Below are positions 42,164 to 59,165 of a DNA stretch of 64,000 nt, piece after piece; position 1 is the stretch's first letter, and each line of letters opens with the position of its first letter. The translations under genes were made by a program, and so were the position numbers. The notes below the pieces were generated by a model. It was not told the DNA's origin, searched no databases, and saw nothing but the letters and a program-made list of their open reading frames with translations. This DNA comes from a virus. Location: positions 86,767 through 150,766 of IMG/VR virus record IMGVR_UViG_3300048065_001187, one strand, 5' to 3'.

Positions 42164-42192
42164 TTGACAAGAGTTTCTTTATAGGCTAAAGT
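42164..42192 (+). promoter_or_regulatory. Leaderless promoter of uvsE
   Basis: TTGACA (42164-42169), 17 nt, TAAAGT (42187-42192), 6 nt to ATG 42199. Confidence 0.75.
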
Positions 42193-42198
42193 ACAATC

Positions 42199-43206
42199 AT
42201 GACACAAATACTAGGACTAACTTGCATAAGTGAAATACTAAAAGAAAAGGATAAAGCAAAATATTCTTTTCGCACAATGACTCGCAAACGCTTTAATGAT
42301 TTGTGTAACCAAGAAGGTAGAGATGAAGCAGTCAATCAATTATCTGAAAGAATTTTGCACAATGTTATTGTTACTCAATATATTGTCAATCATTGTCATT
42401 CCTCAAATCTTAGGCATTATCGTCTTAGTTCTGCTCTTTTTCCTCTCCTTACCGACCAAACTTTGGATATTTCTCTTGAAGATTTACCGCACAAAGCAAG
42501 AATAGAACAAGAGCTAAAGTTAGTAGGTTTAATTGCGGAAAAGTTTGATATATCAATTGGTTCTCACCCCGATCAATTTAATGTTCTTGCATCTCCCGAT
42601 AGAGACAAAGTTAATCGTACAATAAACGAACTTAATTTTCAAGCAAGCGTTCTTGATATGATTGGTTTACCTCAAGATCATACTGCACCAATGAATATTC
42701 ATATTAACTATTCGCCAAAAGAAGATGAAACATTGGAAGTTGTTGCTACTAGATTTTTTCGCAACCTTTCTATGTGTGATAAAGGTGTTTACAAGCGTCT
42801 TACTATTGAAAACGAAGACAAAGGTTTCTTTAATGTAGATAACTGCATGGCATTTAGTGATTACTTGTTTAAAACATTTGGTGCAATGATCCCTGTTTGT
42901 TTTGACAACTTACATCATATGTGCAACCCATCAGAAGAGTCTTGTATTAAGTGGCAAGCCGAGCGTTGTGCATATACTTGGGTTAGTCAAGGGGATGGTG
43001 ACAGCAATTTCATTGCTCCTGTCTTTCATTGGTCAGAAGGCAATCCACAAAAACCTCGCTCTCATGCAGATTATTTTTCTTTTATGAATGCTCCACCATA
43101 CATTGCTATTGAACCTAACAAACCTGTGAAGTGGGAATGTGAAGTTAAGCAAAAAGACAAAGCAATTCAAGTCTTGCGAAATAATCTAGCAGAAAAAAGC
43201 GCGTGA
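42199..43206 (+). CDS. uvsE: UV-damage endonuclease UvsE (canonical copy)
   Basis: 335 residues. Nicks DNA 5' to cyclobutane dimers and (6-4) photoproducts, starting alternative excision repair. TIM-barrel metal ligands are intact: G-S-H-P-D-Q-F (His 123), N-I-H-I-N-Y, I-E-N-E-D-K-G (Glu 204), C-F-D-N-L-H-H (Asp 236, His 239/240), F-H-W-S-E-G (His 277), R-S-H-A-D-Y (His 289) and E-C-E-V-K-Q-K-D. A second, degenerate copy lies at 20128. A phage copy would protect genomes in sunlit water. Confidence 0.9.
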   Translation: MTQILGLTCISEILKEKDKAKYSFRTMTRKRFNDLCNQEGRDEAVNQLSERILHNVIVTQYIVNHCHSSNLRHYRLSSALFPLLTDQTLDISLEDLPHKARIEQELKLVGLIAEKFDISIGSHPDQFNVLASPDRDKVNRTINELNFQASVLDMIGLPQDHTAPMNIHINYSPKEDETLEVVATRFFRNLSMCDKGVYKRLTIENEDKGFFNVDNCMAFSDYLFKTFGAMIPVCFDNLHHMCNPSEESCIKWQAERCAYTWVSQGDGDSNFIAPVFHWSEGNPQKPRSHADYFSFMNAPPYIAIEPNKPVKWECEVKQKDKAIQVLRNNLAEKSA

Positions 43207-43280
43207 TCAATTATTTAATTAATATTTTATTTATTTTGGCAATCGTAGCATTTAGTTGTTTATTAATGCTTGACTCTTGA
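43203..43280 (+). CDS. 25-residue membrane peptide
   Basis: GTG start overlapping the uvsE TGA. Hydrophobic helix (Y-L-I-N-I-L-F-I-L-A-I-V-A-F-S-C-L-L). Its end overlaps the next promoter. Confidence 0.4.
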   Translation: MINYLINILFILAIVAFSCLLMLDS

Positions 43281-43298
43281 TTAACAATTTGCTAAGGT
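43270..43298 (+). promoter_or_regulatory. Leaderless promoter
   Basis: TTGACT (43270-43275), 17 nt, TAAGGT (43293-43298), 6 nt to ATG 43305. TAAGGT recurs at 53158, 53637 and 58980. Confidence 0.7.
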
Positions 43299-43304
43299 GT
43301 TGCT

Positions 43305-43784
43305 ATGGTAAAAATAATAGATGGCAATCTTCTTAATTTTCCAAATGGCATTGACTTTATAGCTCATTCATGCAACACTCATAATGTTATGGGGGCAGGA
43401 ATTGCTAGGGAAATAAAATATCGCTACCCTAATGCTTACTCTGCTGATTGTCATGCAATGATGGATGGTGATAATGTTTTGGGCGGTTTTAGTTTTTCGG
43501 TGACTGATGCTACTCAAAGCAAAGGTATCTACAATATGTATACCCAAGATAAAATCGGGGGCAAAAGAGCAGTTAATTATGAAGCATTTTATGTTGCATT
43601 GAATAAAGTAGCGGGTCATATCGAATGGCAATCCAAGCATGAAGAAGTAGAAAAGACTTTAGGCTTGCCTTGGGGTATTTCTTGTGGACTCGCAGGGGGA
43701 AGTTGGAATGTAATTTTTTCAATGATAAATGATATTTTGATTGACAGAAAGTTTAAAACATATATCGTTAAGTATGATGAATGA
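43305..43784 (+). CDS. Macro-domain ADP-ribose-binding protein
   Basis: 159 residues, a single macro domain. F-I-A-H-S-C-N-T-H-N-V-M-G-A-G-I-A near residue 18 contains the catalytic/ribose-binding Asn and glycine loop. I-Y-N-M-Y-T-Q near 77 and the distal phosphate loop I-S-C-G-L-A-G-G-S-W near 125 are present. Closest in style to Poa1/ALC1-like domains that hydrolyse ADP-ribose-1''-phosphate or de-ADP-ribosylate macromolecules. In a phage it could reverse ADP-ribosylation by host defences such as DarT, or recycle NAD products; this role is inference. Overlaps the GIY-YIG gene. Confidence 0.85.
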   Translation: MVKIIDGNLLNFPNGIDFIAHSCNTHNVMGAGIAREIKYRYPNAYSADCHAMMDGDNVLGGFSFSVTDATQSKGIYNMYTQDKIGGKRAVNYEAFYVALNKVAGHIEWQSKHEEVEKTLGLPWGISCGLAGGSWNVIFSMINDILIDRKFKTYIVKYDE

Positions 43785-44565
43785 ATTGGATTCTAGGTTT
43801 CTTGCTCCTTTTGGAGATGTCCTTCCTTGTTTACATCAGCATATAGTATCAAATTATCATCCATCGTTGCTTGATGATGTTTGGGATGATCAAGTGAGAG
43901 AGCTTGAATTATATATGAATGAATATGGAAACAAGAAGATTGCGCCTGCAAATTTTCACTTTGCACAAGATATAATTCTCTTATCTTTACTATGTTTGCA
44001 TACTAATTATCAATTTTTATCTAAAAATGATTTTAAAAAATGGATAAATTCTCGATATTACTTAAAAAGTTTTGATTTTCAACCTCAAAGTTACGCATAT
44101 ATTGAATTTTATATTCATCACGATAATAAAATGTTTTTCTACATAGGTAAAGGAACAGAAAAAAGGGTTAAACAACATACAGCGAATGGCGGTCAAAATT
44201 TATTTCATAAACAGCAAAGAGTTAAAGTATTCTCTATTGAGGTTTTAGCCTTTTTGGATTTCCCAAAATTACCATTTTTTTACGAAAATCTTTTTTATAA
44301 TCATTTTGCTTATTTATGCGAAGAGTTGCAATCAAATTTTGATTTTACTTTTGATCTTGAGTTTAAAGGTCGTCACTATTCTGATTATAATTACTCTGAT
44401 GACATGGTTGATTTGTTTTGTGCAAATTCAGCTTACTTGAAGTCTAAATTAGAAAAAACTGCTTCGGTTTTAGGAGAGATTCATAAGCAATATTTTTCAT
44501 ATGAATTTAGTAAAATCTCAAATGATATTAAAAAAGTCTTGACAGAAAATTTAAAACGTATATAG
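43774..44565 (+). CDS. GIY-YIG nuclease-domain protein
   Basis: 263 residues from ATG 43774. An N-terminal helical region of about 105 residues is followed by a GIY-YIG-like core: Y-I-E-F-Y-I then F-F-Y-I-G-K-G-T-E-K-R-V-K-Q-H (residues about 110-140), and Y-E-N-L-F-Y-N-H, whose Glu fits the catalytic acid. The C-terminal third is helical. Could be a homing, repair or DNA-processing nuclease. It overlaps the macro-domain gene by 11 nt. Confidence 0.7.
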   Translation: MMNELDSRFLAPFGDVLPCLHQHIVSNYHPSLLDDVWDDQVRELELYMNEYGNKKIAPANFHFAQDIILLSLLCLHTNYQFLSKNDFKKWINSRYYLKSFDFQPQSYAYIEFYIHHDNKMFFYIGKGTEKRVKQHTANGGQNLFHKQQRVKVFSIEVLAFLDFPKLPFFYENLFYNHFAYLCEELQSNFDFTFDLEFKGRHYSDYNYSDDMVDLFCANSAYLKSKLEKTASVLGEIHKQYFSYEFSKISNDIKKVLTENLKRI

Positions 44566-44566
44566 T
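44539..44566 (+). promoter_or_regulatory. Sigma-70-type promoter
   Basis: TTGACA (44539-44544), 16 nt, TATAGT (44561-44566), 8 nt to ATG 44575. Lies inside the GIY-YIG gene end. Confidence 0.75.
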
Positions 44567-44574
44567 TAGATACC

Positions 44575-45480
44575 ATGACTGATGTAAATACAAACGAACT
44601 TATCAGAAGTTCATATGTTAATTCAATTGGTGACCTTACTTTAAATCAGGATCATCAAACTATACAACAACGACTCAATGAAGCTAGCGAAAAAGACCAT
44701 CTCAAACAAGAGAGAGAGGAGAATGAGAGGATTAAAGCGGATTTGTTCAAAAGAATGGCAGACCTGAAAAGCAAAGAAGAATCATTGACTAAATTAGAGA
44801 ATTCATTAAAAACCAGGGAAATTGCGCTAAATTCCAATCAGCAATCTCTTCAGCAGAAAATAAATGAACACAAAAAGGAAAAGAAAAAATATGAACAAGA
44901 TACGAAAAAACAAATAGATCATAGAAATAAAATATCAGAAAACCTTAATGAAAGATCGAGATCGCTCAATCAAAAAGAAGAAAACCTTAAAGAAAAATCG
45001 CGAGTGCTTGATAATAGAGAAAAGAGATTAGAAACTAGAGAAGTTATCGCAAACCAAAATTCATTAGGAGTTCAAGTGCTTGAGCACAAGTTAACTGAAA
45101 TCGAAAGTAGGCTTACAGAAGGTTTTTTGGAGATAGATGAAAAAATTGATTCAATTACTTTACCTCAAAAGAAAAAGCTAACCAAAGAAAAAAGTAATCA
45201 CAATCAAATAGACTTTTTGAGTGATAAGCAAAGTATATCTTTACCCGAAGATTATGTATTCTCTTTGCAGGATGGTGAAGAGCTTGGTAAGTGCGAAAAT
45301 CTTCAAGATTTCATTAGCGGAATTGGTCGCGCAAAAATCACAGGCAACATTGATGACTTTCTTGCAGATTTCAATTTCTATTTCCACGATGAAGGCGAAC
45401 CTTTCTTTGAGGTCAATATCGCAGAACTCCACGAAAATACCCAAAAAGACCTAATTGAAACTTTTTTAAAAAATACTTGA
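44575..45480 (+). CDS. Coiled-coil protein preceding GHKL ATPase
   Basis: 301 residues. Residues about 35-195 are a continuous Lys/Glu-rich coiled coil (S-L-T-K-L-E-N-S-L-K-T-R-E, R-S-L-N-Q-K-E-E-N-L-K-E-K-S-R). The last 100 residues form an acidic globular domain (P-E-D-Y-V-F-S-L-Q-D-G-E-E-L ... F-F-E-V-N-I). No family recognised. It is adjacent to the GHKL ATPase with its own promoter; a structural partner is plausible. Its TGA forms part of the next -35 box. Confidence 0.65.
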   Translation: MTDVNTNELIRSSYVNSIGDLTLNQDHQTIQQRLNEASEKDHLKQEREENERIKADLFKRMADLKSKEESLTKLENSLKTREIALNSNQQSLQQKINEHKKEKKKYEQDTKKQIDHRNKISENLNERSRSLNQKEENLKEKSRVLDNREKRLETREVIANQNSLGVQVLEHKLTEIESRLTEGFLEIDEKIDSITLPQKKKLTKEKSNHNQIDFLSDKQSISLPEDYVFSLQDGEELGKCENLQDFISGIGRAKITGNIDDFLADFNFYFHDEGEPFFEVNIAELHENTQKDLIETFLKNT

Positions 45481-45505
45481 CTTATAAAAATTAACCATTT
45501 ATACT
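45477..45505 (+). promoter_or_regulatory. Promoter of GHKL ATPase gene
   Basis: TTGACT (45477-45482) containing the upstream TGA, 17 nt, TATACT (45500-45505), 12 nt to ATG 45518. Confidence 0.75.
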
Positions 45506-45517
45506 GATAATCATATT

Positions 45518-48217
45518 ATGAATAAAGACAAATTCCACTACATCTCCGATCAACTAGCTGATCTCGTATTAAAAAATAACTCATGTGCTTTCTTAACTCC
45601 TCAATTAATTAAAGAAGGTGTTTTCTCTTTTGATAAAAGAGGCGGTAAAGATTTCTACGGCACTCTTTTTGGAAGCACAATAAGGCTTTCTCTTAAAAAA
45701 GGATACCAAGGGGCTTCTGAAGGTAACAATGATATAGGTGTTCTAGCTTGCAGGGAATTGTTTGTTAATGCCGATGAAGCTTTACTTGAGCTTGATTATG
45801 CCTTATCTGATGAACAGGATTATAACAAGGTTCTTAAAGGCGGTAAATCTAAATATCAAATCTCTAGTATGATTGATGCTCAAAATAAATTTCCTGTTTC
45901 GGAAACTTTATCAAATGTTCATCAAAAGAGAATTAATGCAGTCCTCGTAGAAGGTAGCAATGAAAATTTAAGGGGTTTATGCGTTCAAGATTCAGGTATC
46001 GGTCAATGCGGAGATTCCTTTGAAGGTAACTTTACCTATAGCAATCGTCATTCTACAAAAGGTGGAATCAATTTTCTCACAGGTTTGTATGGCATGGGTT
46101 CTACTGCTATTACTCAATTTCAATCGCATGAAACATTAAGGTATAGAATGGCATTTTCTAGGCGTCATCATAAATTCGTAGAACCTTATGAATTAGAACA
46201 TAATTTCGGCAAACATATTCATTTTGCATTTAATCTTATATTGATTCCCGATTTATTTGAAGATGGGGGGGTTTTATCAGAACTTGATTGTCCTACATTA
46301 GATCGAGGATATAATTTTTATTCTCTTGAAATTGAGGTTGATGATGGTGTTTTCAAGCATCCAATTTGCAGTGAAAACTATAAATTTTCTCCATCTTACT
46401 CAGTTAAACCTGCTAAGAAAAATTGCAAGGGTTTAGAGCATGGAACTTTGGTTATGGTATCTGATGTTGATTTGCATACTAATTCTTCTCAAGTCTGCAA
46501 TGTTCAAGCAAAGCATACTTTCTATTCTACAGGAAGAGGAGTTAATTCTTTAGCTTCGGTTTTAAATTCAACGCACCCTAATTACTTAAACACTATAGGG
46601 CTTGATGATTATATGCAAAAAGCTACTCGCGCCAAATCTGCAAGCGACAATGGGGGCGGTAGTTCTCGTAAAATCCAAGGTCTTGAACAGATTGTATCCA
46701 AGGATGGATATGAGACTATTGATTTTGGTGAATTTAATATGAATTTATTTGGTTCAGTAGAGCCAATAAAAGTTCTTGGTTATTTCGATAATCGACCTGT
46801 TGAGGGTAATTACAAGCAAGATACCGCTATGAATGGTTGCAGTTTTAAACTTGGAGACTTTTATGCTTGTTTTGATTCTTTAACTAAAATTAGAACCAAG
46901 TACAAAATTCAAAAACCTTTGTGCGATTCAATCAAATTTATCTTTGATTTTAATAATTGTAGTGAAAAAACTAAGAGGAAATTGACACAATCCTCTCGCA
47001 ACAATCTTAATTTAGATAAATCCGAAAGGGATGAACTTACTGAAAGAGGTATCGACCAAATTCATAATCACTCTCGCATGAAAGAGCTTTTTGCAGAGTA
47101 TCCATCTGCAAGTAATGATAAGCTAGACTCTTTCAAGGAAGAGGATTTCGACCTACTTAGTCCTTTGTTTCTCGGCAATTGCAAGACAGAAGCACCGAAA
47201 CCTAAACCTAATTTAAACGCAACTTATGATCGTGAGTTAAAGTATATTCAGATCAAACCAACCACTTTACGGAGAAAACTTTTCAATAACGAAAAAGTAT
47301 CATTCAAGTGCATTGGCTCTGATTCCTCATCCTTTAACTTGAGTTTTATCCACAACGTTTATGGTTCGGTAGCAGACAAGCATCGTTTTGATATTGATAT
47401 TTCCATGTCGCTAGATCAAGGTAAAACATGGAACAATGCCGTTTCAAATACTCCAATCTGCGATAAGGATGGAGAGCTAGAGATAAAAGGTATTACTTCC
47501 CCGAATCAGAACGATCTTGATTGTGCCGATAAAACTTTCCTAATGAAAGTTAGCATTAAACCAAGAAATCAAGATAAATGGGTAAGTTCGGATTTTGTTT
47601 CAGCGCCGATAGATGTTCGTTGCATTTTTAACGAACCTCAAAACATTAATCATAGCGATCAACCTAGAAACAGGACTAAGTTCAGTTTTTCAAGCTCTGG
47701 CGGTACTGCACCTGCTTTGTGTCCTTTAGATGTAAGGATCATTAAGGATGCAAAGCAGTTTTATGACGCGGAAGGTAATCTCGAATATATGATTTCTTAT
47801 TCTGATGTAGATGATCAGACCAAAATTAGCCCTATGAAGGAAAACGATTTTGTCGGATTTTCTAATAGTCACGACAAGCAAACTATTGTACTGAATGGCA
47901 TTCATCAAGAGCTTTCTAGCAGGTTTCCTGATGACATTGAAAGGGATTTTGCCACAAACTATTTAGCCTCTAAGCTTAAAAGTGTGTGTGCTGAAATCAT
48001 TTCTAATCAAAACGAAGTGACTGATCTGTCTGCTATCAATAGTTCGTTTCCTGCTGAGATAGGAATGGCATTTCTATTGATAGATAAATCCATCAAGCAA
48101 GCAGTTCAAGCGCGTAGAGAGGTTGCCAACAAGAAGAACAAGCGCAAGGCTAAATCCAAGAAGCTTGCTCCCAAGAAGAAGCCTCTAGCAAAGAAGAAAT
48201 CCAAGCAATCTGCGTAA
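45518..48217 (+). CDS. GHKL ATPase with histone-like basic tail
   Basis: 899 residues. GHKL (gyrase/Hsp90/kinase/MutL) ATP-binding motifs: N-box C-R-E-L-F-V-N-A-D-E-A near 78, G1 V-Q-D-S-G-I-G near 157, G2 L-T-G-L-Y-G-M-G-S-T near 187. The middle region is large and unassigned, with a beta-rich segment near 600-740. The last 30 residues are Lys-rich (A-K-S-K-K-L-A-P-K-K-K-P), like histone H1 or nucleoid proteins. It differs from the rIIA-like GHKL at 59908. A dimeric DNA clamp or nucleoid remodeller of MORC style is inferred. The preceding coiled-coil gene may be a partner. Confidence 0.75.
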   Translation: MNKDKFHYISDQLADLVLKNNSCAFLTPQLIKEGVFSFDKRGGKDFYGTLFGSTIRLSLKKGYQGASEGNNDIGVLACRELFVNADEALLELDYALSDEQDYNKVLKGGKSKYQISSMIDAQNKFPVSETLSNVHQKRINAVLVEGSNENLRGLCVQDSGIGQCGDSFEGNFTYSNRHSTKGGINFLTGLYGMGSTAITQFQSHETLRYRMAFSRRHHKFVEPYELEHNFGKHIHFAFNLILIPDLFEDGGVLSELDCPTLDRGYNFYSLEIEVDDGVFKHPICSENYKFSPSYSVKPAKKNCKGLEHGTLVMVSDVDLHTNSSQVCNVQAKHTFYSTGRGVNSLASVLNSTHPNYLNTIGLDDYMQKATRAKSASDNGGGSSRKIQGLEQIVSKDGYETIDFGEFNMNLFGSVEPIKVLGYFDNRPVEGNYKQDTAMNGCSFKLGDFYACFDSLTKIRTKYKIQKPLCDSIKFIFDFNNCSEKTKRKLTQSSRNNLNLDKSERDELTERGIDQIHNHSRMKELFAEYPSASNDKLDSFKEEDFDLLSPLFLGNCKTEAPKPKPNLNATYDRELKYIQIKPTTLRRKLFNNEKVSFKCIGSDSSSFNLSFIHNVYGSVADKHRFDIDISMSLDQGKTWNNAVSNTPICDKDGELEIKGITSPNQNDLDCADKTFLMKVSIKPRNQDKWVSSDFVSAPIDVRCIFNEPQNINHSDQPRNRTKFSFSSSGGTAPALCPLDVRIIKDAKQFYDAEGNLEYMISYSDVDDQTKISPMKENDFVGFSNSHDKQTIVLNGIHQELSSRFPDDIERDFATNYLASKLKSVCAEIISNQNEVTDLSAINSSFPAEIGMAFLLIDKSIKQAVQARREVANKKNKRKAKSKKLAPKKKPLAKKKSKQSA

Positions 48218-48223
48218 TAGTTC

Positions 48224-48251
48224 TTGACACAAATCCTAAATTCTGCATACT
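48224..48251 (+). promoter_or_regulatory. Sigma-70-type promoter
   Basis: TTGACA (48224-48229), 16 nt, CATACT (48246-48251), 8 nt to ATG 48260. Confidence 0.65.
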
Positions 48252-48259
48252 GAAATACT

Positions 48260-48487
48260 ATGAATAGATTTGAATTAGAAGATGCAATGAGTGACCTTCA
48301 CCAAGTAGGTCAAGATATAGAAACAATCATATATGCCATTGGAGACTCTCCTATCAAGCATACTGAAGATCAATTATTGAATATGTTGATCGGTATGAAA
48401 CAGATGCATGAAACTCGTTATCAAAAAATGTGGAATATATTTGAGTGTTTAGTTAAAAAAGGAATCATATCAAACAAGGAGAAATAA
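48260..48487 (+). CDS. Helical hypothetical 75-residue protein
   Basis: Predicted all-helical (D-L-H-Q-V-G-Q-D-I-E-T-I-I-Y-A-I-G). No family. First gene of a small-protein transcript. Confidence 0.6.
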   Translation: MNRFELEDAMSDLHQVGQDIETIIYAIGDSPIKHTEDQLLNMLIGMKQMHETRYQKMWNIFECLVKKGIISNKEK

Positions 48488-48491
48488 AATA

Positions 48492-48830: not shown

Positions 48831-48831
48831 T

Positions 48832-49062: not shown

Positions 49063-49130
49063 ACGATTTGTTGGCTTTTTTACTTATAATGATTATCTTG
49101 TCATTGAGCTTTTGGTTATTTTTTTCTTGA
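49059..49130 (+). CDS. 23-residue membrane peptide
   Basis: GTG start overlapping the lipoprotein TGA. Hydrophobic helix (L-L-A-F-L-L-I-M-I-I-L-S-L-S-F-W-L-F-F). Its TGA is inside the next -35 box. Confidence 0.4.
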   Translation: MNDLLAFLLIMIILSLSFWLFFS

Positions 49131-49155
49131 CGGCAATGCTACTTTCAGCTAGTGT
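49127..49155 (+). promoter_or_regulatory. Leaderless promoter
   Basis: TTGACG (49127-49132), 17 nt, TAGTGT (49150-49155), 6 nt to ATG 49162. Confidence 0.7.
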
Positions 49156-49161
49156 TTCATT

Positions 49162-49368
49162 ATGAGCAAATACAATCCAAAGAAAAAGAATACTTACCTG
49201 TTTAGCGTTCCTGCTACTTATGTCTACGAAGTAGATGCTGATAGCGAGGAAGAGGCTAGAGAATTACTAGAAGAAGAAGGGGGTATGGATATTGAGGGCG
49301 AACTTTGCGACATAACTCGCAAGGATTACCAAAATGCTATTCTTGAAGAAACATGGGAGAGTGAATAA
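49162..49368 (+). CDS. DpnD/PcfM-like small protein
   Basis: 68 residues. Beta hairpin then A-D-S-E-E-E-A-R-E-L-L-E-E helix: the pattern F-x-V-x-x-x-Y-V-Y-E-V-D-A-x-S-x-E-E-A is shared with the proteins at 52951 and 54247. Function unknown. TAATG-style overlap with the next gene. Confidence 0.55.
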   Translation: MSKYNPKKKNTYLFSVPATYVYEVDADSEEEARELLEEEGGMDIEGELCDITRKDYQNAILEETWESE

Positions 49369-50824: not shown

Positions 50825-50826
50825 TT

Positions 50827-52198: not shown

Positions 52199-52202
52199 AA
52201 AC

Positions 52203-52406: not shown

Positions 52407-52620
52407 TGGGCAAATCCAAAACTTAATTAGTGCAAATAAAATTCTTGTTCAAGATGTTCTTACTAATAAATCTTTTACACAAGGGGATAGAGAGCAAGTT
52501 AGGGATAAAATGTATTTACTTACATTGCAGTTAGCTTTTTGGGTTGATAAAAACAATAAACAGCGTTTTTTTTACGATTTAAAAGATCATATTCGTTGGA
52601 TGTTGAAAAACTTTTCGTAA
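52399..52620 (+). CDS. Helical hypothetical 73-residue protein
   Basis: Start at ATG 52399, overlapping the previous stop; the in-frame codon at 52348 is deep in the upstream gene. All-helical with W-V-D-K-N-N-K-Q-R-F-F-Y. No family. Confidence 0.55.
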   Translation: MTDGQIQNLISANKILVQDVLTNKSFTQGDREQVRDKMYLLTLQLAFWVDKNNKQRFFYDLKDHIRWMLKNFS

Positions 52621-52627
52621 AAAAGAG

Positions 52628-52656
52628 TTGACAATGCCCCGAACTTTTACTAGATT
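52628..52656 (+). promoter_or_regulatory. Leaderless promoter
   Basis: TTGACA (52628-52633), 17 nt, TAGATT (52651-52656), 6 nt to ATG 52663. Confidence 0.75.
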
Positions 52657-52662
52657 GAGGGT

Positions 52663-52947
52663 ATGAGCAAAATTACATCACAAGAAATATTAACGCAAGA
52701 AGCGTTCCGAATTAAAGATTTAAAAGAATCTATTGCTGAATCTTACCCCGAAGCATTATTTGCTGATGGACATGATCATGCAATCTTGGGTTACTCTCAA
52801 GATGGTAGAGTGATCTACTCTTATAATAAAATAATAGAGGGATTAATGGATAGCATGACCCATGAAGAGGCAGTAGAATATTTTGATTTTAACATTGGTT
52901 GCGCCTATGTTGGCGAGTATACCCCAATCTATATGTACGAGGAATAG
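52663..52947 (+). CDS. Conserved-looking hypothetical 94-residue protein
   Basis: Contains D-G-H-D-H-A-I-L-G-Y-S-Q-D-G-R-V-I-Y-S and M-T-H-E-E-A-V-E-Y-F-D-F-N. This pattern is frequent in phage proteins of unknown function. Leaderless transcript. Confidence 0.6.
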   Translation: MSKITSQEILTQEAFRIKDLKESIAESYPEALFADGHDHAILGYSQDGRVIYSYNKIIEGLMDSMTHEEAVEYFDFNIGCAYVGEYTPIYMYEE

Positions 52948-52950
52948 ATA

Positions 52951-53160
52951 ATGAAAACATACGAAGTAGAATTAATGGCAACAACTTATAGAACCTATGA
53001 AGTTGAAGCAGAATCTCCCGAACAAGCCCAAGATATTGTCTTTAGTGAATTAGATGAAGACCACATGATTAGTACCGCATGGAAAGAAGAGGCGAAATTA
53101 TCTTATTGCGAAGAGATAAAAGAAGATTCCGAGCTTGACAAACTAAACCAAGACCTATAA
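52951..53160 (+). CDS. DpnD/PcfM-like small protein
   Basis: 69 residues: V-E-L-M-A-T-T-Y-R-T-Y-E-V-E-A-E-S-P-E-Q-A then an acidic helix. Paralogous in pattern to 49162 and 54247. Its TAA forms the first three bases of the next -10 box. Confidence 0.6.
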   Translation: MKTYEVELMATTYRTYEVEAESPEQAQDIVFSELDEDHMISTAWKEEAKLSYCEEIKEDSELDKLNQDL

Positions 53161-53163
53161 GGT
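53135..53163 (+). promoter_or_regulatory. Leaderless promoter built on a stop codon
   Basis: TTGACA (53135-53140), 17 nt, TAAGGT (53158-53163) whose TAA is the upstream stop; 6 nt to ATG 53170. Confidence 0.75.
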
Positions 53164-53169
53164 AAAGAT

Positions 53170-53457
53170 ATGAATAGAAATACAGAAATATTGCAACTAA
53201 GAGAATTACATGAAGTGGAAAGCTCACTTAACACTACAATAGGTCAGATTTATGAATATCCACCTGCTAAAAAAATTGCTGAAAAATTATTTGATTTAAA
53301 TGATGAGTTGAATGCTTTATTAAATAAAAGATCAGATATTTTAAATATGAATTTACGATTTGGATCAGTTGGCGTGGATACATCTCATTTAAACAATGAC
53401 GATTTTGGCGCTTTTATTCGGGGCGAAATAAATGAACATGGAGATAAATTAACATGA
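53170..53457 (+). CDS. Helical hypothetical 95-residue protein
   Basis: N-terminal helices (L-Q-L-R-E-L-H-E-V-E-S-S-L), end with V-D-T-S-H-L-N-N-D-D-F-G. No family. Leaderless start; overlaps the next gene by ATGA. Confidence 0.55.
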   Translation: MNRNTEILQLRELHEVESSLNTTIGQIYEYPPAKKIAEKLFDLNDELNALLNKRSDILNMNLRFGSVGVDTSHLNNDDFGAFIRGEINEHGDKLT

Positions 53458-53609
53458 AAGTAATTCGCACAATAATTAATTGGTTTTATCGCAAGAAAAA
53501 TGTTCGCTCCTCGAAAAAGCAAATGGATAAAATAATGAGCGAAGTTAATGCTGATTTCATGGATTACGATGGCATGGGTAACTACGGAAGATTTCCGCCC
53601 GAAAAATAA
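53454..53609 (+). CDS. Small basic protein
   Basis: 51 residues. I-I-N-W-F-Y-R-K-K-N-V-R-S-S-K-K basic region, then acidic D-F-M-D-Y-D-G-M-G. Start overlaps the previous stop. Function unknown. Confidence 0.5.
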   Translation: MKVIRTIINWFYRKKNVRSSKKQMDKIMSEVNADFMDYDGMGNYGRFPPEK

Positions 53610-53613
53610 ATAC

Positions 53614-53642
53614 TTGACAATAATAAATAAACGATATAAGGT
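53614..53642 (+). promoter_or_regulatory. Leaderless promoter
   Basis: TTGACA (53614-53619), 17 nt, TAAGGT (53637-53642). ATG codons follow at 0 and 6 nt; the second (53649) matches the usual 6-nt spacing. Confidence 0.7.
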
Positions 53643-53648
53643 ATGAGC

Positions 53649-54065
53649 ATGAAAAAAATTATAGGAGACGATTATCCAACTTACGAAGAATCTGTAAATC
53701 TTACTCTTGCAGAAAAACAAAAGGCTGAGGCTTTGACTTATCTCACAGAAGTAGAGAGCGAAATCAATAAGCAAAACATTGAAAGATTAATGAAAGAAAA
53801 TCTTGAGCTTAGACATCGCTTGTCTTGTATTACTGATGACATTGAAATTATTGATAGGCACATTAAAAATAATTGCAATAAAAGATTTAAAAGACCAAGC
53901 TTGAATAAAGATGGTAGTACCTATGCAGATAAAGCATGGCACAATGTTACAAATATAGAAATTGCTTGTGATTTAAATGATGACGAGCCATTATATTGGG
54001 GGAGTAAAATCAAAGGAGAACTCACCCAAGACCAAATCATGGAAATGGAACAACAAATACGATGA
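53649..54065 (+). CDS. Hypothetical 138-residue protein
   Basis: Start at 53649 by promoter spacing (53643 adds M-S). Coiled-coil centre (N-I-E-R-L-M-K-E-N-L-E-L-R-H-R-L), basic K-R-F-K-R-P, acidic end. No family. ATGA overlap downstream. Confidence 0.6.
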   Translation: MKKIIGDDYPTYEESVNLTLAEKQKAEALTYLTEVESEINKQNIERLMKENLELRHRLSCITDDIEIIDRHIKNNCNKRFKRPSLNKDGSTYADKAWHNVTNIEIACDLNDDEPLYWGSKIKGELTQDQIMEMEQQIR

Positions 54066-54250
54066 ACATCGACTATTCTTTATTAGAAAAACAAAGAGAT
54101 CATTTGCTCGCAATTTTGTGGCATGACTTCAAACCTCCACAAGAAAGAGAAGAAGAGCCTGTCCCACTAGATAGAGAATTAGGTTGGGGCATTGTACATT
54201 TACTAGACGATTTACTAGATCAAGACTATTACAAAAATAAAAAAACATGA
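54062..54250 (+). CDS. Hypothetical 62-residue protein
   Basis: Acidic, helical (L-L-E-K-Q-R-D-H-L-L-A-I-L-W-H-D). ATGA overlaps on both sides. No family. Confidence 0.5.
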   Translation: MNIDYSLLEKQRDHLLAILWHDFKPPQEREEEPVPLDRELGWGIVHLLDDLLDQDYYKNKKT

Positions 54251-54471
54251 GTAAGAAAAGAGAATATTGCGTTGGGATTAAAATAATCAATTGTTTTTAT
54301 GTCGAGGCAGAAAATAGAACTGAAGCAGAAGAAATTGTCAGGAGTTATGATCCTTACAAAACTCTTGACGATTGTGATTTTAATATTGAATATGCTGATC
54401 CTACAAATGGGCAAGTAGCATGGCAAATAAGAGCAGACGAAGTAGATTGGAATAAACTTAATAATGAATAA
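54247..54471 (+). CDS. DpnD/PcfM-like small protein
   Basis: 74 residues: V-G-I-K-I-I-N-C-F-Y-V-E-A-E-N-R-T-E-A-E-E-I-V then D/Y-rich end. Third member of this pattern with 49162 and 52951. Confidence 0.55.
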   Translation: MSKKREYCVGIKIINCFYVEAENRTEAEEIVRSYDPYKTLDDCDFNIEYADPTNGQVAWQIRADEVDWNKLNNE

Positions 54472-54673
54472 AAAAACTTTAGCATCACTCAAAAAAGAAG
54501 AAGAACTAAACCAAGAGATTGTAGATTCTTGGAAACATATTAAAGACCTTGAGGCAGAACTAGAATTTCTTTATGTAAGAGAACCGCATGAAGTAGAATA
54601 TATTGAGCGTTTAAAAAATGTGCTTGACAATTTATATCAAAAAGTAGAGAATGAAAAACATGAGATTAAATAA
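54464..54673 (+). CDS. Coiled-coil hypothetical 69-residue protein
   Basis: Helical, E/K-rich (W-K-H-I-K-D-L-E-A-E-L-E-F-L). Overlaps both neighbours. No family. Confidence 0.5.
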   Translation: MNKKTLASLKKEEELNQEIVDSWKHIKDLEAELEFLYVREPHEVEYIERLKNVLDNLYQKVENEKHEIK

Positions 54674-54863
54674 ATATCAAAAAGCTAGATTACTTGAACA
54701 TGAATGGGATGTTGTTGAAAACGACAATGGGCAAAACTGCTCATGGATTAGCGTAGAACCCGAAGATGGTGAAATTTTTCATATCGTAACTGAACTTTTT
54801 GGCTTGACAGGAGAGGGCAAAGATATTAAGTTATTGGTAGTAGGCACAAGAGAGGAATTTTAA
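54651..54863 (+). CDS. Hypothetical 70-residue protein
   Basis: Starts at 54651 or 54660. K-Y-Q-K-A-R-L-L-E-H-E-W-D-V-V-E then alternating strands. No family. Confidence 0.5.
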   Translation: MKNMRLNKYQKARLLEHEWDVVENDNGQNCSWISVEPEDGEIFHIVTELFGLTGEGKDIKLLVVGTREEF

Positions 54864-54865
54864 TT

Positions 54866-55063
54866 ATGAGAACAACAAAAGAACAACAACGAGACGAAGA
54901 ACCATCAATAGACGATATGCGTTATGACATTGCAGAACGAGAAGCAATGAATATGAATGTTAGTGAAATAATTGATCTTTTACTCGATGGGTGCATTGGA
55001 TTAAATGAAATGCCAAGCATTGAAATAAAAGATGAATGGAATCAAATTTTTAACTCAAAATAA
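54866..55063 (+). CDS. Conserved-looking 65-residue protein
   Basis: D-I-A-E-R-E-A-M-N-M-N-V-S-E-I-I-D-L-L-L-D-G-C-I-G resembles a widespread short helical phage family with the L-x-x-G-C-x-G motif. Function unknown. Confidence 0.55.
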   Translation: MRTTKEQQRDEEPSIDDMRYDIAEREAMNMNVSEIIDLLLDGCIGLNEMPSIEIKDEWNQIFNSK

Positions 55064-55070
55064 TATAAAT

Positions 55071-55274
55071 ATGAATATAAATCCCGAACATCAAGCTAAA
55101 GAAGAACAAATCAGAAACCTAGAGCAAGAACTTACTGAAACTCAAGAAGAAGTAATGCAATATCAAAACCTCGGAGATAATCATACTGCTAATGTATATG
55201 TCCGAAGGTGTGCGGAGATAAAAAAATCTATTGATACTTTAAAAATGGAAATTTCAGATAACAATGAATCTTGA
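55071..55274 (+). CDS. Coiled-coil hypothetical 67-residue protein
   Basis: Start at M-N-I-N-P-E-H-Q. Long E/Q-rich coil then an R-R-C-A-E-I-K-K-S-I helix. Overlaps the next gene by 11 nt. Confidence 0.5.
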   Translation: MNINPEHQAKEEQIRNLEQELTETQEEVMQYQNLGDNHTANVYVRRCAEIKKSIDTLKMEISDNNES

Positions 55275-55443
55275 ACAAGCATTTGACATCGTAATGAATG
55301 AAGCAGAAGTTTCTGCTCTTGGAGAAAAGAGTGATGAACACTTAAAAGTTCTACTCGCAACAGAAGTAATGCAAGCGTTTTACGAAGAGCATGGGCATCA
55401 CTTTGCCAACTTTTCCCTTGACAAAGCAGAGCAAGTTTCATAG
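55264..55443 (+). CDS. Hypothetical 59-residue protein
   Basis: Helical (A-F-D-I-V-M-N-E-A-E-V) ending F-S-L-D-K-A-E-Q-V-S. A longer opposite-strand frame exists but context favours this one. Its TAG begins the next -10 box. Confidence 0.55.
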   Translation: MNLEQAFDIVMNEAEVSALGEKSDEHLKVLLATEVMQAFYEEHGHHFANFSLDKAEQVS

Positions 55444-55446
55444 ATT
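55418..55446 (+). promoter_or_regulatory. Promoter built on a stop codon, with leader
   Basis: TTGACA (55418-55423), 17 nt, TAGATT (55441-55446) containing the TAG stop. ATG is 32 nt away; the leader ends CACAAACACAAGGAA, similar to the rIIA-like leader. Confidence 0.75.
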
Positions 55447-55478
55447 ACAATCATTAATCACAAACACAAGGAATAAAA

Positions 55479-56099
55479 ATGAATTACTTCACAAATACAA
55501 ATATCCGTTGGAAAACATGGTCGCCCGAAAATGTTATCTTTAAAAGCAATCAATTAGTCAAGAAGGTTTTACCCTCTGAACATATTTTATCATGGAAGAG
55601 TAAAGGTGATCGTGACCAAAAAATGTGTGAACGCACAGGTCACAAGGTAACTCAACCAAGCCCTTATGCAAATGCAAAACCATATACATATTATACCAAA
55701 GAAAACTACAAAGGTGTTATGGTTCAATTAAAAGATGTAAAGGATGACTTTCCATCTGCTAATATTGACTTTATTGATTGGACAGAACGAAAAGATAGTG
55801 TTGACAACCTAAAAGGTCATCTCGATGTATTGGTTTATCTTAATTCTTTTCATAGTAATTTTACATGGGATAAATGTGCCACAACAGGTAATTGGATCAA
55901 GACAAGCACAGGCAAAACTGCTCCATTACGAGAAGGTTATCGTATGTGTTATGGTGGACAGGGTGATGCTAATGCTATGGATTTTGATGAATTCCATGAG
56001 GTGATTCAAATAACAGAAATGATCAGAGATTTTCTTGTTGATGTTGTCGTTCCCTCAAAGAATGGTGAATTAGTTGAAGAAGATTTATTAGTAGCATAA
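55479..56099 (+). CDS. Hypothetical 206-residue protein
   Basis: Soluble alpha/beta protein with W-K-T-W-S-P-E-N-V-I-F, F-T-W-D-K-C-A-T-T-G-N-W-I-K and an acidic C-terminal helix. One of few genes here with a true leader and AAGGA ribosome binding site, so probably well expressed. No family recognised. Confidence 0.65.
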   Translation: MNYFTNTNIRWKTWSPENVIFKSNQLVKKVLPSEHILSWKSKGDRDQKMCERTGHKVTQPSPYANAKPYTYYTKENYKGVMVQLKDVKDDFPSANIDFIDWTERKDSVDNLKGHLDVLVYLNSFHSNFTWDKCATTGNWIKTSTGKTAPLREGYRMCYGGQGDANAMDFDEFHEVIQITEMIRDFLVDVVVPSKNGELVEEDLLVA

Positions 56100-56224
56100 T
56101 GCCAATTTATTATAGCGATGATGTATTATTATATGTTGGTGATCCAAAAGGTTTTCAAGATTACATAAAACAAGCAGAATTAAAAAAACTAGAAGAAGAC
56201 ACAACAAATTCTAATGATGACTAA
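56099..56224 (+). CDS. Hypothetical 41-residue protein
   Basis: TAATG coupling. M-P-I-Y-Y-S-D-D-V-L-L-Y-V-G-D-P then an acidic helix. Function unknown. Confidence 0.45.
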   Translation: MPIYYSDDVLLYVGDPKGFQDYIKQAELKKLEEDTTNSNDD

Positions 56225-56312
56225 TTTGCCCGAAATAGTACAAACAACAAGTTTACTCTTGGGTTTAGTTGCAGTAGTTGTTTTTCTTTTAATATTAGCA
56301 AGTCATGAATAG
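56214..56312 (+). CDS. 32-residue membrane peptide
   Basis: Overlaps both neighbours (11 nt and 8 nt). TM helix (L-L-L-G-L-V-A-V-V-V-F-L-L-I-L). Member of the tiny TM set. Confidence 0.5.
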   Translation: MMTNLPEIVQTTSLLLGLVAVVVFLLILASHE

Positions 56313-56487
56313 AATCGTAATGGATGATTATGACGCAGGGTTTATGGATGCGGTAAAATTATTAGAGAAAAAATTAGACGTAATGATTGAAAAATACGAA
56401 GATATTTTAAAAAAATATGACTACATAGAAGAAGCAAGGGATGTACAATTACTTCTTGATGTAAAGAGAAAACTTTTTGACGAATAG
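56305..56487 (+). CDS. Helical hypothetical 60-residue protein
   Basis: D-A-G-F-M-D-A-V-K-L-L-E-K-K-L and a second charged helix. No family. Confidence 0.5.
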   Translation: MNRIVMDDYDAGFMDAVKLLEKKLDVMIEKYEDILKKYDYIEEARDVQLLLDVKRKLFDE

Positions 56488-56489
56488 TA

Positions 56490-56518
56490 TTGACAGGGTT
56501 TGAGTTTTTGCTTAGTGT
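56490..56518 (+). promoter_or_regulatory. Leaderless promoter
   Basis: TTGACA (56490-56495), 17 nt, TAGTGT (56513-56518), 6 nt to ATG 56525. Confidence 0.75.
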
Positions 56519-56524
56519 GTTGAG

Positions 56525-56740
56525 ATGAATTACTCGATAATAGAAGGGTGTATTAGGCAAAGTATGGATTTACCAATAAATAAATCAGAGATAATAGTAA
56601 AACAGAGAGGCAAATTATGGGTGATTAAATCCCATCATGCAGAAAATATTAATTTATTAACTCGCAGAAAAACTCTTGACAGGGTTGATCTTTTATGTTT
56701 AACTGATCTTGGTTTTAAAATTAAATACGAAAATAAATAA
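56525..56740 (+). CDS. Hypothetical 71-residue protein
   Basis: Basic alpha/beta protein (E-I-I-V-K-Q-R-G-K-L-W-V-I-K-S). Leaderless. No family. Confidence 0.55.
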   Translation: MNYSIIEGCIRQSMDLPINKSEIIVKQRGKLWVIKSHHAENINLLTRRKTLDRVDLLCLTDLGFKIKYENK

Positions 56741-56752
56741 GGAGAAAATATT

Positions 56753-57181
56753 ATGGGATTAGATATGTATGCTTATGCTCGTCCACCTCGCAAGAGAAAT
56801 AGTGACGAAGATGTCTCAATTTGCGATTGGAGAAAACATAATCGCTTGCAAGGTTGGATGGAAGACTTGTGGGAAGCTAAGGGTAGACCAAATTGGAAAC
56901 CATCTGAAGAAGAGAATGACTTTAGTGGTGATTTTAATTCTGTTGAGTTGCAATTAACTAGGGCAGACCTTTATGATTTGCAAGATGATATTGTAAATTT
57001 TAATTTGCCCGAATCAAATGGATTCTTTTGGGGTAGTGATTCTTATTTTTGGCATAATGAAGATGGTGAACCATATCCCGATAACGAATATTATTACAAA
57101 GAACAAGATTTAAATTTTGTGGCAGAAGCACATAAAATGCTTGACAAGGGTTATCGAGTATTTTATACTTGTTGGTACTAA
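56753..57181 (+). CDS. Conserved phage protein (MGLDMYAYA family)
   Basis: 142 residues beginning M-G-L-D-M-Y-A-Y-A, with D-W-R-K-H-N-R-L-Q-G-W-M and an F-F-W-G-S-D-S-Y-F-W stretch. This family recurs in unrelated phages without known function. Strong ribosome binding site AAGGAG 9 nt upstream. Confidence 0.7.
   Translation: MGLDMYAYARPPRKRNSDEDVSICDWRKHNRLQGWMEDLWEAKGRPNWKPSEEENDFSGDFNSVELQLTRADLYDLQDDIVNFNLPESNGFFWGSDSYFWHNEDGEPYPDNEYYYKEQDLNFVAEAHKMLDKGYRVFYTCWY
57141..57169 (+). promoter_or_regulatory. Promoter of lipoprotein gene
   Basis: TTGACA (57141-57146), 17 nt, TATACT (57164-57169), 11 nt to ATG 57181, inside the upstream gene. Confidence 0.7.
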
Positions 57182-57495
57182 TGAAATATTTTACCTTAAC
57201 AATCTTACTTTTTGCAGGATGCAATCATTCTTCTAATCTTCAGCCCGAAGATACAAAAGTTTCTCGTTCAGTAGATATGCAAGAAGAAATAAATTATTTA
57301 CTATCCTTAGATGAAGCGTACAAAATGGAAGAAAAAATGTATTTAGAGGAAATAAGAAAAGCTCAACTAAATGATGATGAAATCGCATTTCAATTTTTCA
57401 TTAGAGAATACGCTAAAGTAAAAAGGTTAGATTTACCTGAATGGATCAAAAAAGAACCAAACTATGTTGAGGGTGGAGTAAATATAAAATATTAA
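57181..57495 (+). CDS. Small lipoprotein
   Basis: 104 residues from ATG 57181 (TAATG). Signal Y-F-T-L-T-I-L-L-F-A-G-C, Cys 14. The mature part M-Y-L-E-E-I-R-K-A-Q-L-N-D-D-E-I-A-F-Q-F-F resembles the 32839 lipoprotein, indicating a paralogous family. Confidence 0.65.
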   Translation: MKYFTLTILLFAGCNHSSNLQPEDTKVSRSVDMQEEINYLLSLDEAYKMEEKMYLEEIRKAQLNDDEIAFQFFIREYAKVKRLDLPEWIKKEPNYVEGGVNIKY

Positions 57496-57629
57496 TTTTG
57501 GGTTCACCTCTTTCTGATCCTATTCCTACGGAACTACCCTGTCTGATCAACTAAAAAAGACTAGAAAGTAATTCGATTACTACTATATCGGAGTTAGTCA
57601 TGGATACTCTCCATGCAAATATTTAAACT
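57496..57629 (+). other. Intergenic region with two hairpins
   Basis: 134 nt without an ORF, less AT-biased than neighbouring gaps. Perfect hairpins AGTAAT-TCG-ATTACT and CATGGA-TACTC-TCCATG precede the next ATG. Could be a structured leader or small RNA. Confidence 0.35.
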
Positions 57630-57890
57630 ATGAAAATAAAATTAGGATTAAGAGGAAGTTCAGATGCGGTAAATCATATTTTAATAAAAATAGATGATCT
57701 TACTTTAATGACTACTGAAAATTTATTTCTTGCGGGGGAAGAGTATAGAAATAAAACAGGAAAAAATATTGTGGAATTATTAGATTGTTTATCCAAAGAT
57801 CATGAAATATTAATTAAAGAAAATATAGCAAAGGAAGCAGAAAGAGAATTAGGGTTAAAAAACGGAGAATTACAAAAATATTCAAAATAG
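57630..57890 (+). CDS. Hypothetical 86-residue protein
   Basis: L-G-L-R-G-S-S-D-A-V-N-H-I-L-I-K-I-D-D-L then helices with A-G-E-E-Y-R-N-K-T-G-K-N. No family. Preceded by the hairpin region. Confidence 0.55.
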   Translation: MKIKLGLRGSSDAVNHILIKIDDLTLMTTENLFLAGEEYRNKTGKNIVELLDCLSKDHEILIKENIAKEAERELGLKNGELQKYSK

Positions 57891-57892
57891 TA

Positions 57893-57921
57893 TTGACACA
57901 CAATCAAAACTAATCTAATTT
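57893..57921 (+). promoter_or_regulatory. Leaderless promoter
   Basis: TTGACA (57893-57898), 17 nt, TAATTT (57916-57921), 7 nt to ATG 57929. Confidence 0.75.
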
Positions 57922-57928
57922 ACAAACC

Positions 57929-58162
57929 ATGAATACCGCACAAGCATTTATAGATAGTATTAACCAATCAATCGCCAATGCCGAGAAGATAGCAAACTCG
58001 ATCCCCAAGAAGGGTCTTAATGTTTATCTCGACAAATCAACTATGGTCATGCAAACATTCAATGATCCTAGTGCGTTTGCTCATGCCAAGAAAGTTACTG
58101 CAAGAGCAGGGCAATCAAGTTGTCTTCGCAATGTATTAGATGCAGGGGGAAGATTGCAATAA
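57929..58162 (+). CDS. Hypothetical 77-residue protein
   Basis: Neutral-to-basic (S-A-F-A-H-A-K-K-V-T-A-R-A-G-Q). Unlike the acidic neighbours, it has few Asp/Glu. Leaderless monocistronic unit. No family. Confidence 0.55.
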   Translation: MNTAQAFIDSINQSIANAEKIANSIPKKGLNVYLDKSTMVMQTFNDPSAFAHAKKVTARAGQSSCLRNVLDAGGRLQ

Positions 58163-58236
58163 AGCATGATAAAAGATGCAGAACAATAGTTTTGACACTC
58201 AAATACAAAGTTTTTACCCAAAACACATCAAAATGC

Positions 58237-58265
58237 TTGACATATCATGCAAATTAACCTAGTTT
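58237..58265 (+). promoter_or_regulatory. Leaderless promoter
   Basis: TTGACA (58237-58242), 17 nt, TAGTTT (58260-58265), 7 nt to ATG 58273. Another TTGACA lies at 58194 without a good -10. Confidence 0.7.
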
Positions 58266-58272
58266 CAAAAAT

Positions 58273-58536
58273 ATGAAACAACCAATATACGATGGCACAA
58301 ATGAAGATGAGTGCGAATATTACGACAATGTAATCATGGAATTACCAACATACGAAGAATATATAAAAGATATGTCATTAGTAGATCAAATAAAATTCTA
58401 TTTTGATGTTGACATTGATAACTATTTAGGTGATCCTTGGGAAATACTCGCAGAATGTGCAGTTGATCCACATTGGCTAAGTGAGTTTAAAGTTAATTTT
58501 AAAGAATATCTACAAGAAAGGGAATACATACAATGA
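58273..58536 (+). CDS. Acidic hypothetical 87-residue protein
   Basis: Asp/Glu/Tyr-rich (N-E-D-E-C-E-Y-Y-D-N-V). Ends in a helix. No family. ATGA coupling to the next gene. Confidence 0.55.
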   Translation: MKQPIYDGTNEDECEYYDNVIMELPTYEEYIKDMSLVDQIKFYFDVDIDNYLGDPWEILAECAVDPHWLSEFKVNFKEYLQEREYIQ

Positions 58537-58763
58537 AAGAATTAAAAGAAAAATTAAATAAAGTTATCTCCAAACAAGTTGAGATGGTAAACAAACATGG
58601 CTCAAATACTCTCTCTACTTGTGATCATTACAATTGGGATAAAGACATTTGGAATCATAGATATTCTATTGTTGACAAGCTAATTGATCTAGGTTTTAAT
58701 GTCGATACTCAAATGAATTGGGAAGTATTAGATATAACAATTACAAAGGAATTAAAACTATGA
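58533..58763 (+). CDS. Hypothetical 76-residue protein
   Basis: K-E-L-K-E-K-L-N-K-V-I-S-K-Q-V-E helix, then W-D-K-D-I-W-N-H-R. No family. Overlaps neighbours by ATGA. Confidence 0.5.
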   Translation: MKELKEKLNKVISKQVEMVNKHGSNTLSTCDHYNWDKDIWNHRYSIVDKLIDLGFNVDTQMNWEVLDITITKELKL

Positions 58764-58960
58764 AAGTAACAAATATTAGATATTTTAAAACAAACAAGGG
58801 GGTTGGTTATCAATGCAAAACTAACATTAAAGATGTAGAAATATGCAATGATGGCGCAGGTGGAGCAACTTATGTAGATGGAGATTTAAAAAAATTAATT
58901 AAAGAATATACTGAATGGGATTTAGAAGATTTAATTGATCAATACGAAAATAATTCTTGA
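58760..58960 (+). CDS. Hypothetical 66-residue protein
   Basis: Start at 58760 by ATGA overlap. G-V-G-Y-Q-C-K-T-N-I-K-D-V-E-I-C-N-D-G-A-G-G-A-T-Y beta motif, acidic helix at the end. Its TGA lies in the next TTGACA. Confidence 0.55.
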   Translation: MKVTNIRYFKTNKGVGYQCKTNIKDVEICNDGAGGATYVDGDLKKLIKEYTEWDLEDLIDQYENNS

Positions 58961-58985
58961 CACAATAATAAAAAGGAGATAAGGT
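58957..58985 (+). promoter_or_regulatory. Leaderless promoter on a stop codon
   Basis: TTGACA (58957-58962) containing the upstream TGA, 17 nt, TAAGGT (58980-58985), 6 nt to ATG 58992. Confidence 0.75.
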
Positions 58986-58991
58986 ACGAGT

Positions 58992-59165
58992 ATGAATATA
59001 AATCACATATACGAAGATAGTGCAATTGCAGATAAATTTTATTACGATAATTTCACAGGGACTTATTTCCTGCATGATGAGGAATGGGAAGAACCAATGG
59101 AATTTACTGAAGACGAATTAATTAACGAAGGAATTTATTTAAATGAATACTGCCAAAGAATATAA
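58992..59165 (+). CDS. Acidic hypothetical 57-residue protein
   Basis: Start fixed by the leaderless promoter. Y-E-D-S-A-I-A-D-K-F-Y-Y-D-N and E-E-W-E-E-P-M-E-F. No family. Confidence 0.55.
   Translation: MNINHIYEDSAIADKFYYDNFTGTYFLHDEEWEEPMEFTEDELINEGIYLNEYCQRI

What the first reader, a model, noticed from the sequence alone, without database searches (positions are those of the whole stretch)
42164..58992. Widespread leaderless transcription from a uniform promoter class
At least thirteen genes have TTGACA/T-N17-TAnnnT with the start codon only 6-7 nt after the -10 (19224, 29093, 30225, 42199, 43305, 49162, 52663, 53170, 53649, 56525, 57929, 58273, 58992). With normal start-site spacing, the A of ATG is +1. 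This gives a rule that fixes several start codons and implies leaderless translation as the main early mode.
Basis: seen in the sequence. Interest (0 to 1): 0.75.

Follow-up and report, generated by a model that had tools for sequence, protein, structure and literature searches.

The report
Leaderless promoter array in marine phages
In this uncultured large phage and dozens of its marine relatives, many small genes have a standard bacterial promoter placed so that the message should begin exactly at the start codon, with no leader or ribosome-binding site, an arrangement known from single phage genes but rarely seen on this scale.

Summary
In the window, TTGAC lies 35 or 36 nt before an ATG that opens an ORF of at least 40 codons 17 times; about 1 is expected, and none occurs on the other strand at a strict profile threshold. 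Eleven of the 13 cited sites fit fully; 29093 and 30225 have only TTGAAT and TTGATC as -35. In 37 related viral loci the same distance histogram has a sharp peak (d=34: 5, 35: 180, 36: 87, 37: 27, 38: 68; background about 8) that survives collapsing to gene families. The aligned sites show CTTGACA-N17-TAnnnT, a pyrimidine before the ATG (84% against 46% in other genes), no Shine-Dalgarno excess, and only ATG starts (103 ATG, 0 GTG/TTG at gap 6). In UvdE orthologs the spacer is randomised while the geometry is kept. Leaderless mRNA is the best reading. "Main early mode" goes too far: about 19% of plus-strand genes and half of recognisable promoters show it, timing is untested, and leadered SD promoters and a phage sigma factor are present. 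Precedents are λ cI, φYS40 and Corndog. What is new is the scale, the clade-wide conservation, and a similar array in an apparently unrelated phage.

The parts
19188..19226 (+). leaderless promoter + ATG 19224 (TTGACA-N17-TATATT, gap 7); nucleoside 2-deoxyribosyltransferase-like gene
33813..33853 (+). near-leaderless promoter + ATG 33851 (TTGACT-N17-TATATT, gap 9)
   Evidence: family seen at d=35-38 in 8 loci
38106..38146 (+). near-leaderless promoter + ATG 38144 (TTGACA-N17-TAGAGT, gap 9, ATT-ATG subclass, predicted 3-nt leader)
   Evidence: family in 21 loci
42164..42201 (+). leaderless promoter + ATG 42199, UvdE-like UV endonuclease gene (TTGACA-N17-TAAAGT, gap 6)
43270..43307 (+). leaderless promoter + ATG 43305, macro-domain/phosphatase-like gene (TTGACT-N17-TAAGGT, gap 6)
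48224..48262 (+). probable leaderless promoter + ATG 48260 (TTGACA-N16-CATACT, gap 8); ortholog family conserved at d=36 in 24 sites
49127..49164 (+). leaderless promoter + ATG 49162 (TTGACG-N17-TAGTGT, gap 6)
52628..52665 (+). leaderless promoter + ATG 52663 (TTGACA-N17-TAGATT, gap 6); family conserved in 17 loci
53135..53172 (+). leaderless promoter + ATG 53170 (TTGACA-N17-TAAGGT, gap 6); family conserved in 16 loci
53614..53651 (+). leaderless promoter + ATG 53649 (TTGACA-N17-TAAGGT, gap 6); 19 of 20 family sites at d=35, supporting 53649 over the ATG at 53643
56490..56527 (+). leaderless promoter + ATG 56525 (TTGACA-N17-TAGTGT, gap 6)
57893..57931 (+). leaderless promoter + ATG 57929 (TTGACA-N17-TAATTT, gap 7)
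58237..58275 (+). leaderless promoter + ATG 58273 (TTGACA-N17-TAGTTT, gap 7)
58957..58994 (+). leaderless promoter + ATG 58992 (TTGACA-N17-TAAGGT, gap 6)
29057..29095 (+). cited site, weak: TTGAAT-N17-TATAAT, gap 7, ATG 29093
   Evidence: profile score 1.6
30189..30227 (+). cited site, weak: TTGATC-N17-TATAGT, gap 7, ATG 30225
   Evidence: profile score 6.5
55418..55481 (+). contrast: leadered promoter (TTGACA-N17-TAGATT) with AAGGA before ATG 55479
59844..59910 (+). contrast: leadered promoter (TTGACA-N16-CATACT) with AAGGA before ATG 59908 (RIIA-like gene)
35584..36129 (+). phage-encoded sigma-70 region-2 protein (181 aa), a possible second promoter-specificity factor

Best explanation
These are sigma-70-type promoters (CTTGACA-N17-TAnnnT) fused to start codons, so that transcription begins at the A of the ATG. 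The resulting leaderless mRNAs would be bound by the ribosome through their 5'-terminal AUG, by the 70S/initiator-tRNA route, without a Shine-Dalgarno site. The unit recurs at about 14-17 genes of the window, mostly small genes in the right arm, and is a conserved trait of a clade of large uncultured marine phages. It makes each gene's promoter and start codon one compact cassette of about 38 bp that can lie inside the end of the preceding gene. Shown: geometry, conservation, base preferences, lack of SD, ATG-only starts.
For: Window: 17 TTGAC sites at d=35/36 against 1.2 expected; profile trained on relatives only finds 17 starts against 0.74 expected, 0 on the minus strand. Relatives (684 kb): d=34: 5, 35: 180, 36: 87, 37: 27, 38: 68, background about 8, no peak on the minus strand; by gene family 6, 47, 38, 20, 27 against about 6. 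The sharp lower edge is what +1 = A predicts. Logo of 162 distinct d=35 sites: A at -11 91%, T at -7 93%, C at -36 60%, spacer unconserved, pyrimidine at -1 87%. -1 pyrimidine 84% against 46% in other genes, P 3e-30. SD-like motif 12%, equal to the ATG background of 11.6%; 31% after leadered promoters of the same genomes. Start codon at gap 6: 103 ATG, 0 GTG, 0 TTG. 261 of 1350 plus-strand genes against 6 and 11 at shifted distances. UvdE orthologs: -35 identity 96%, spacer 34%, N-terminus conserved 2-6 codons after the ATG.
Against: No transcription start has been mapped and the host is unknown. Genes can also be reached by read-through from upstream promoters, giving leadered copies. In d=37-38 sites +1 may lie 2-3 nt upstream (ATT-ATG subclass), so these would have a very short leader. 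A phage sigma factor exists and its promoters are unknown. A few TAAGGT/GAGG -10 boxes also resemble an SD.
Confidence: 0.87

Rival explanations
1. The promoters are real but the ATG at +1 is not the used start codon: transcription starts there and translation begins at a later codon behind a normal leader.
For: Leadered promoters with SD do exist in the same genomes.
Against: In UvdE orthologs the conserved LGLTC strand begins 2-6 codons after the ATG, leaving no room for another start, and in-frame stops often lie 6-12 nt upstream. The distance is locked in 47 families at d=35.
Confidence: 0.04
2. Genes are expressed mainly from upstream, operon-level promoters. TTGACA...TAnnnT is then a conserved regulatory or repressor site, or an SD-like element, and not a promoter.
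For: Some -10 boxes (TAAGGT, TTGAGG) resemble SD, and in some genes, for example 53170, the -35 lies inside the end of the preceding ORF.
Against: SD-like motifs are at background level. Spacer length, A-11/T-7, C-36 and the -1 pyrimidine follow sigma-70 initiation rules, not a protein-binding palindrome.
Confidence: 0.05
3. The leaderless promoters are read by the phage sigma factor (window 35584-36129) and so belong to middle or late expression, not early. (This concerns timing; it is compatible with leaderless mRNA.)
For: A Sigma70_r2 protein is encoded; the best-known mass leaderless phage, φYS40, uses leaderless mRNA for middle/late genes (PMC3594737).
Against: The consensus is that of a primary sigma with a clear -35; the phage protein has no detectable region 4 to read a -35; the left 87 kb with the structural genes rarely carries the motif.
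Confidence: 0.15
4. Chance in AT-rich DNA.
For: The generic scan finds no excess of promoter-like sites in the region (81 against 84 expected).
Against: The excess lies in the fixed distance to start codons, not in the number of promoter-like strings.
Confidence: 0.005

Closest known systems
Thermus phage φYS40 leaderless middle/late transcripts (reviewed in PMC3594737)
   Same: Many genes of one large lytic phage made as leaderless mRNA.
   Different: Thermophile host, middle/late class; experimentally shown, with IF2/IF3 changes. Here a full -35/-10 consensus, mostly small right-arm genes, clade-wide; sequence evidence only.
Mycobacteriophage Corndog (Cluster O) promoters PL1, PR2, PL2 (PMC4351075)
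   Same: SigA-like promoters predicted with +1 on the first base of the start codon.
   Different: About three promoters per genome, actinobacterial host; here about 14-17 in the window.
Lambda cI from PRM (cI named as a leaderless mRNA in PMC9031893; promoter detail from general knowledge)
   Same: Sigma-70 promoter giving an mRNA that begins at AUG.
   Different: A single gene in a lysogeny switch.
Leaderless mRNAs of bacteria such as Sinorhizobium meliloti (171 mapped, all AUG; PMC3616915)
   Same: AUG-only starts at +1.
   Different: Cellular genes; a minor fraction of transcripts.

Membership tests
Leaderless sigma-70-type transcription units | -35/-10 with 17±1 spacing placed so that +1 falls on the start codon | tested here: met
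Leaderless sigma-70-type transcription units | AUG as start codon | tested here: met
   103 ATG, 0 GTG, 0 TTG at gap 6
Leaderless sigma-70-type transcription units | no Shine-Dalgarno site upstream | tested here: met
   12% SD-like against a background of 11.6%
Leaderless sigma-70-type transcription units | initiation-site base preference (pyrimidine at -1, purine at +1) | tested here: met
   84% against 46% pyrimidine at -1
Leaderless sigma-70-type transcription units | mapped 5' end at the AUG | not testable with these tools
   no transcriptome held
φYS40-type phage strategy | IF2/IF3 balance altered during infection | not testable with these tools
   host and expression unknown
Early phage promoters | transcribed by unmodified host RNAP immediately after infection | not testable with these tools
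   consensus is compatible; a phage sigma factor is also present

The most novel reading that the evidence does not exclude
Fused promoter-start-codon cassettes are a general, repeatedly evolved phage strategy. Arrays of leaderless units would let large phages add small host-takeover genes that need no leader or SD and, after infection, favour 70S/IF3-independent initiation. It is seen in this marine clade and in an apparently unrelated 55% GC phage (L182) with about 20 such units in 13 kb and CA-rich starts.
Probability: 0.35. Interest if true: 0.75.

Novelty: new variant of a known kind. Interest (0 to 1): 0.52.

Why it matters
It gives an exact, testable rule for start-codon and promoter annotation in a clade of large marine phages with no close cultured relative in the collection searched. 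It also suggests that a sizeable part of their small genes is translated without Shine-Dalgarno or leader, which would make phage infection a natural system for asking why and when leaderless initiation is favoured.

Tried and rejected
Generic promoter scan: no excess, because it ignores the distance to the ATG. No cultured relative: megablast of the region found nothing, and the DNA polymerase, UvdE and tail proteins are below 60% identical to any listed phage. Host by MAG membership: polymerase relatives fall in bins of Flavobacteriaceae, Proteobacteria, Verrucomicrobiales, Halobacteriovorax and Woesebacteria, inconsistent and probably bin contamination; those genomes are not rich in the pattern. 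An alphaproteobacterial host was considered because CTTGAC resembles its promoters (recalled, not tested); the host stays open. Late-gene motif search: only weak AT-rich words.

Full report
What the window is. The window is the last 64 kb of a 150,766-bp IMG/VR virus record with tail genes, a DnaE-like DNA polymerase, DnaB, UvsX, ribonucleotide reductase, ClpA/B-like and RIIA/RIIB-like genes. It is a large tailed phage with no near DNA match in the phage collection. The region in question (42-59 kb) is a run of mostly small plus-strand ORFs.

Observation. All 13 ATGs are present. Eleven have TTGAC[ATG]-N17-TAnnnT ending 6 or 7 nt before the ATG; 29093 and 30225 have only TTGAAT and TTGATC. Counting every TTGAC against every ATG that opens an ORF of at least 40 codons gives 10 and 7 sites at distances 35 and 36 in the window, against about 0.6 per other distance. 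A profile trained on relatives, without the window or its near twin L104, recovers 17 starts (0.74 expected) and none on the other strand. The rest of the 150-kb record holds two more strong sites.

Comparative test. A search with the UvdE-like protein (42199-43206) returned 37 viral loci, most with about 20 kb of DNA. The distance histogram has a sharp onset at 35 and a tail to 39, and nothing on the reverse strand. Grouping genes by blastp similarity leaves 47, 38, 20 and 27 families at d=35, 36, 37 and 38 against about 6 per other distance, so this is not one gene counted many times. The onset at 35, and the near-absence of ATGs 0-4 nt after the -10 (5 against 204 at 5-9 nt), is what is expected if the ATG must lie within the transcript and +1 is its A. 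With N17 spacing, d=35 puts the -10 at -12 to -7, the textbook sigma-70 geometry.

Independent signs. (1) The base before the ATG is a pyrimidine in 84% of these genes and 46% of others, the known preference next to a transcription start. (2) SD-like motifs are at the background rate, but nearly three times more common after leadered promoters in the same genomes. (3) Among ATG, GTG and TTG the codon at gap 6 is ATG in all 103 cases, as in mapped leaderless genes of S. meliloti (PMC3616915). (4) Across UvdE orthologs the spacer is randomised (34% identity) while the -35 (96%) and the distance persist and the protein's conserved strand begins 2-6 codons after the ATG. For d=38 sites the triplet at position 35 is often ATT (ATT-ATG), so those genes may carry a 3-nt leader.

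How far the claim goes. About 19% of plus-strand genes in these regions (261 of 1350) and about half of strong promoters (204 of 390) have the leaderless geometry. Gene calls here are mechanical (longest ORFs), so these fractions are approximate. The remaining genes are operon members or leadered, some with SD. So leaderless initiation is a major mode, not shown to be the main one. 'Early' is plausible, since the consensus should be read by unmodified host sigma-70, but it is untested; the phage encodes a sigma-70 region-2 protein at 35584-36129 with no detectable region 4, whose promoters are unknown.

Beyond the clade. A capped pattern scan of viral contigs hit one 146-kb record of 55% GC (L182) with about 20 units TTGACA-N17-TACAAT-N6-ATGACC in 13 kb. 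No shared protein with the window was sought, so 'unrelated' rests on base composition and sequence appearance only. CA-rich sequence after the AUG, seen there, is reported to enhance leaderless translation (PMC9031893). In viral contigs picked with a shifted-gap pattern, d=35 was still about three times background (30 against about 10), so the geometry seems to occur at a low level in phages generally.

Against what is known. Leaderless phage mRNAs are known: λ cI (PMC9031893), φYS40 middle/late genes (PMC3594737), predicted Corndog promoters (PMC4351075) and one predicted in Adephagia (PMC11373665). This is a new variant: many units per genome, a complete sigma-70 consensus, small right-arm genes, conserved across a clade of marine phages. 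My literature search was limited to the open-access library, so an earlier description elsewhere cannot be excluded. 'Marine' rests on my reading of the metagenome and MAG sources and was not tested record by record.

Noticed in passing
window 35584-36129 (+): 181-aa phage protein with sigma-70 region 2 (E about 1e-11) and no detectable region 4; possible middle/late sigma factor.
   Followed up: partly
window 21302-21669 (+): Phage-encoded tmRNA gene (Rfam RF00023, 121 bits), missed by ARAGORN; also in relatives L119 and L124, with predicted tags not ending in the usual LAA.
   Followed up: partly
L182 1807-13931: About 20 leaderless promoter-ATG units in 12-13 kb of a 55% GC, apparently unrelated 146-kb phage contig, TTGACA-N17-TACAAT-ACACAC-ATGACC, before many small genes.
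   Followed up: partly
L377 3030-7850; L378 and L379 minus strand: Second subclass in relatives: near-identical cassettes AAAGTTTTTCTTGACTTTT-N..-TATGTTATAGGCATG before different tiny genes, some of them LTEREKIL paralogs.
   Followed up: partly
window 19211-19226 and 33834-33853: Short palindromes (GCTATA-TTT-TATAGC; TGCTATA-TTG-TATAGCA) spanning the -10 and the start site, possible operators.
   Followed up: no
window 21677-22957 (+): DUF1501 protein (E 1e-111), a family recalled as typical of Planctomycetes/Verrucomicrobia, unusual in a phage.
   Followed up: no
L009 4229-19726 and L010 2128-15142: About 30 tandem ORFs mostly of 190-370 aa in the record's middle; function not identified (one member tested in Pfam had no hit).
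   Followed up: no
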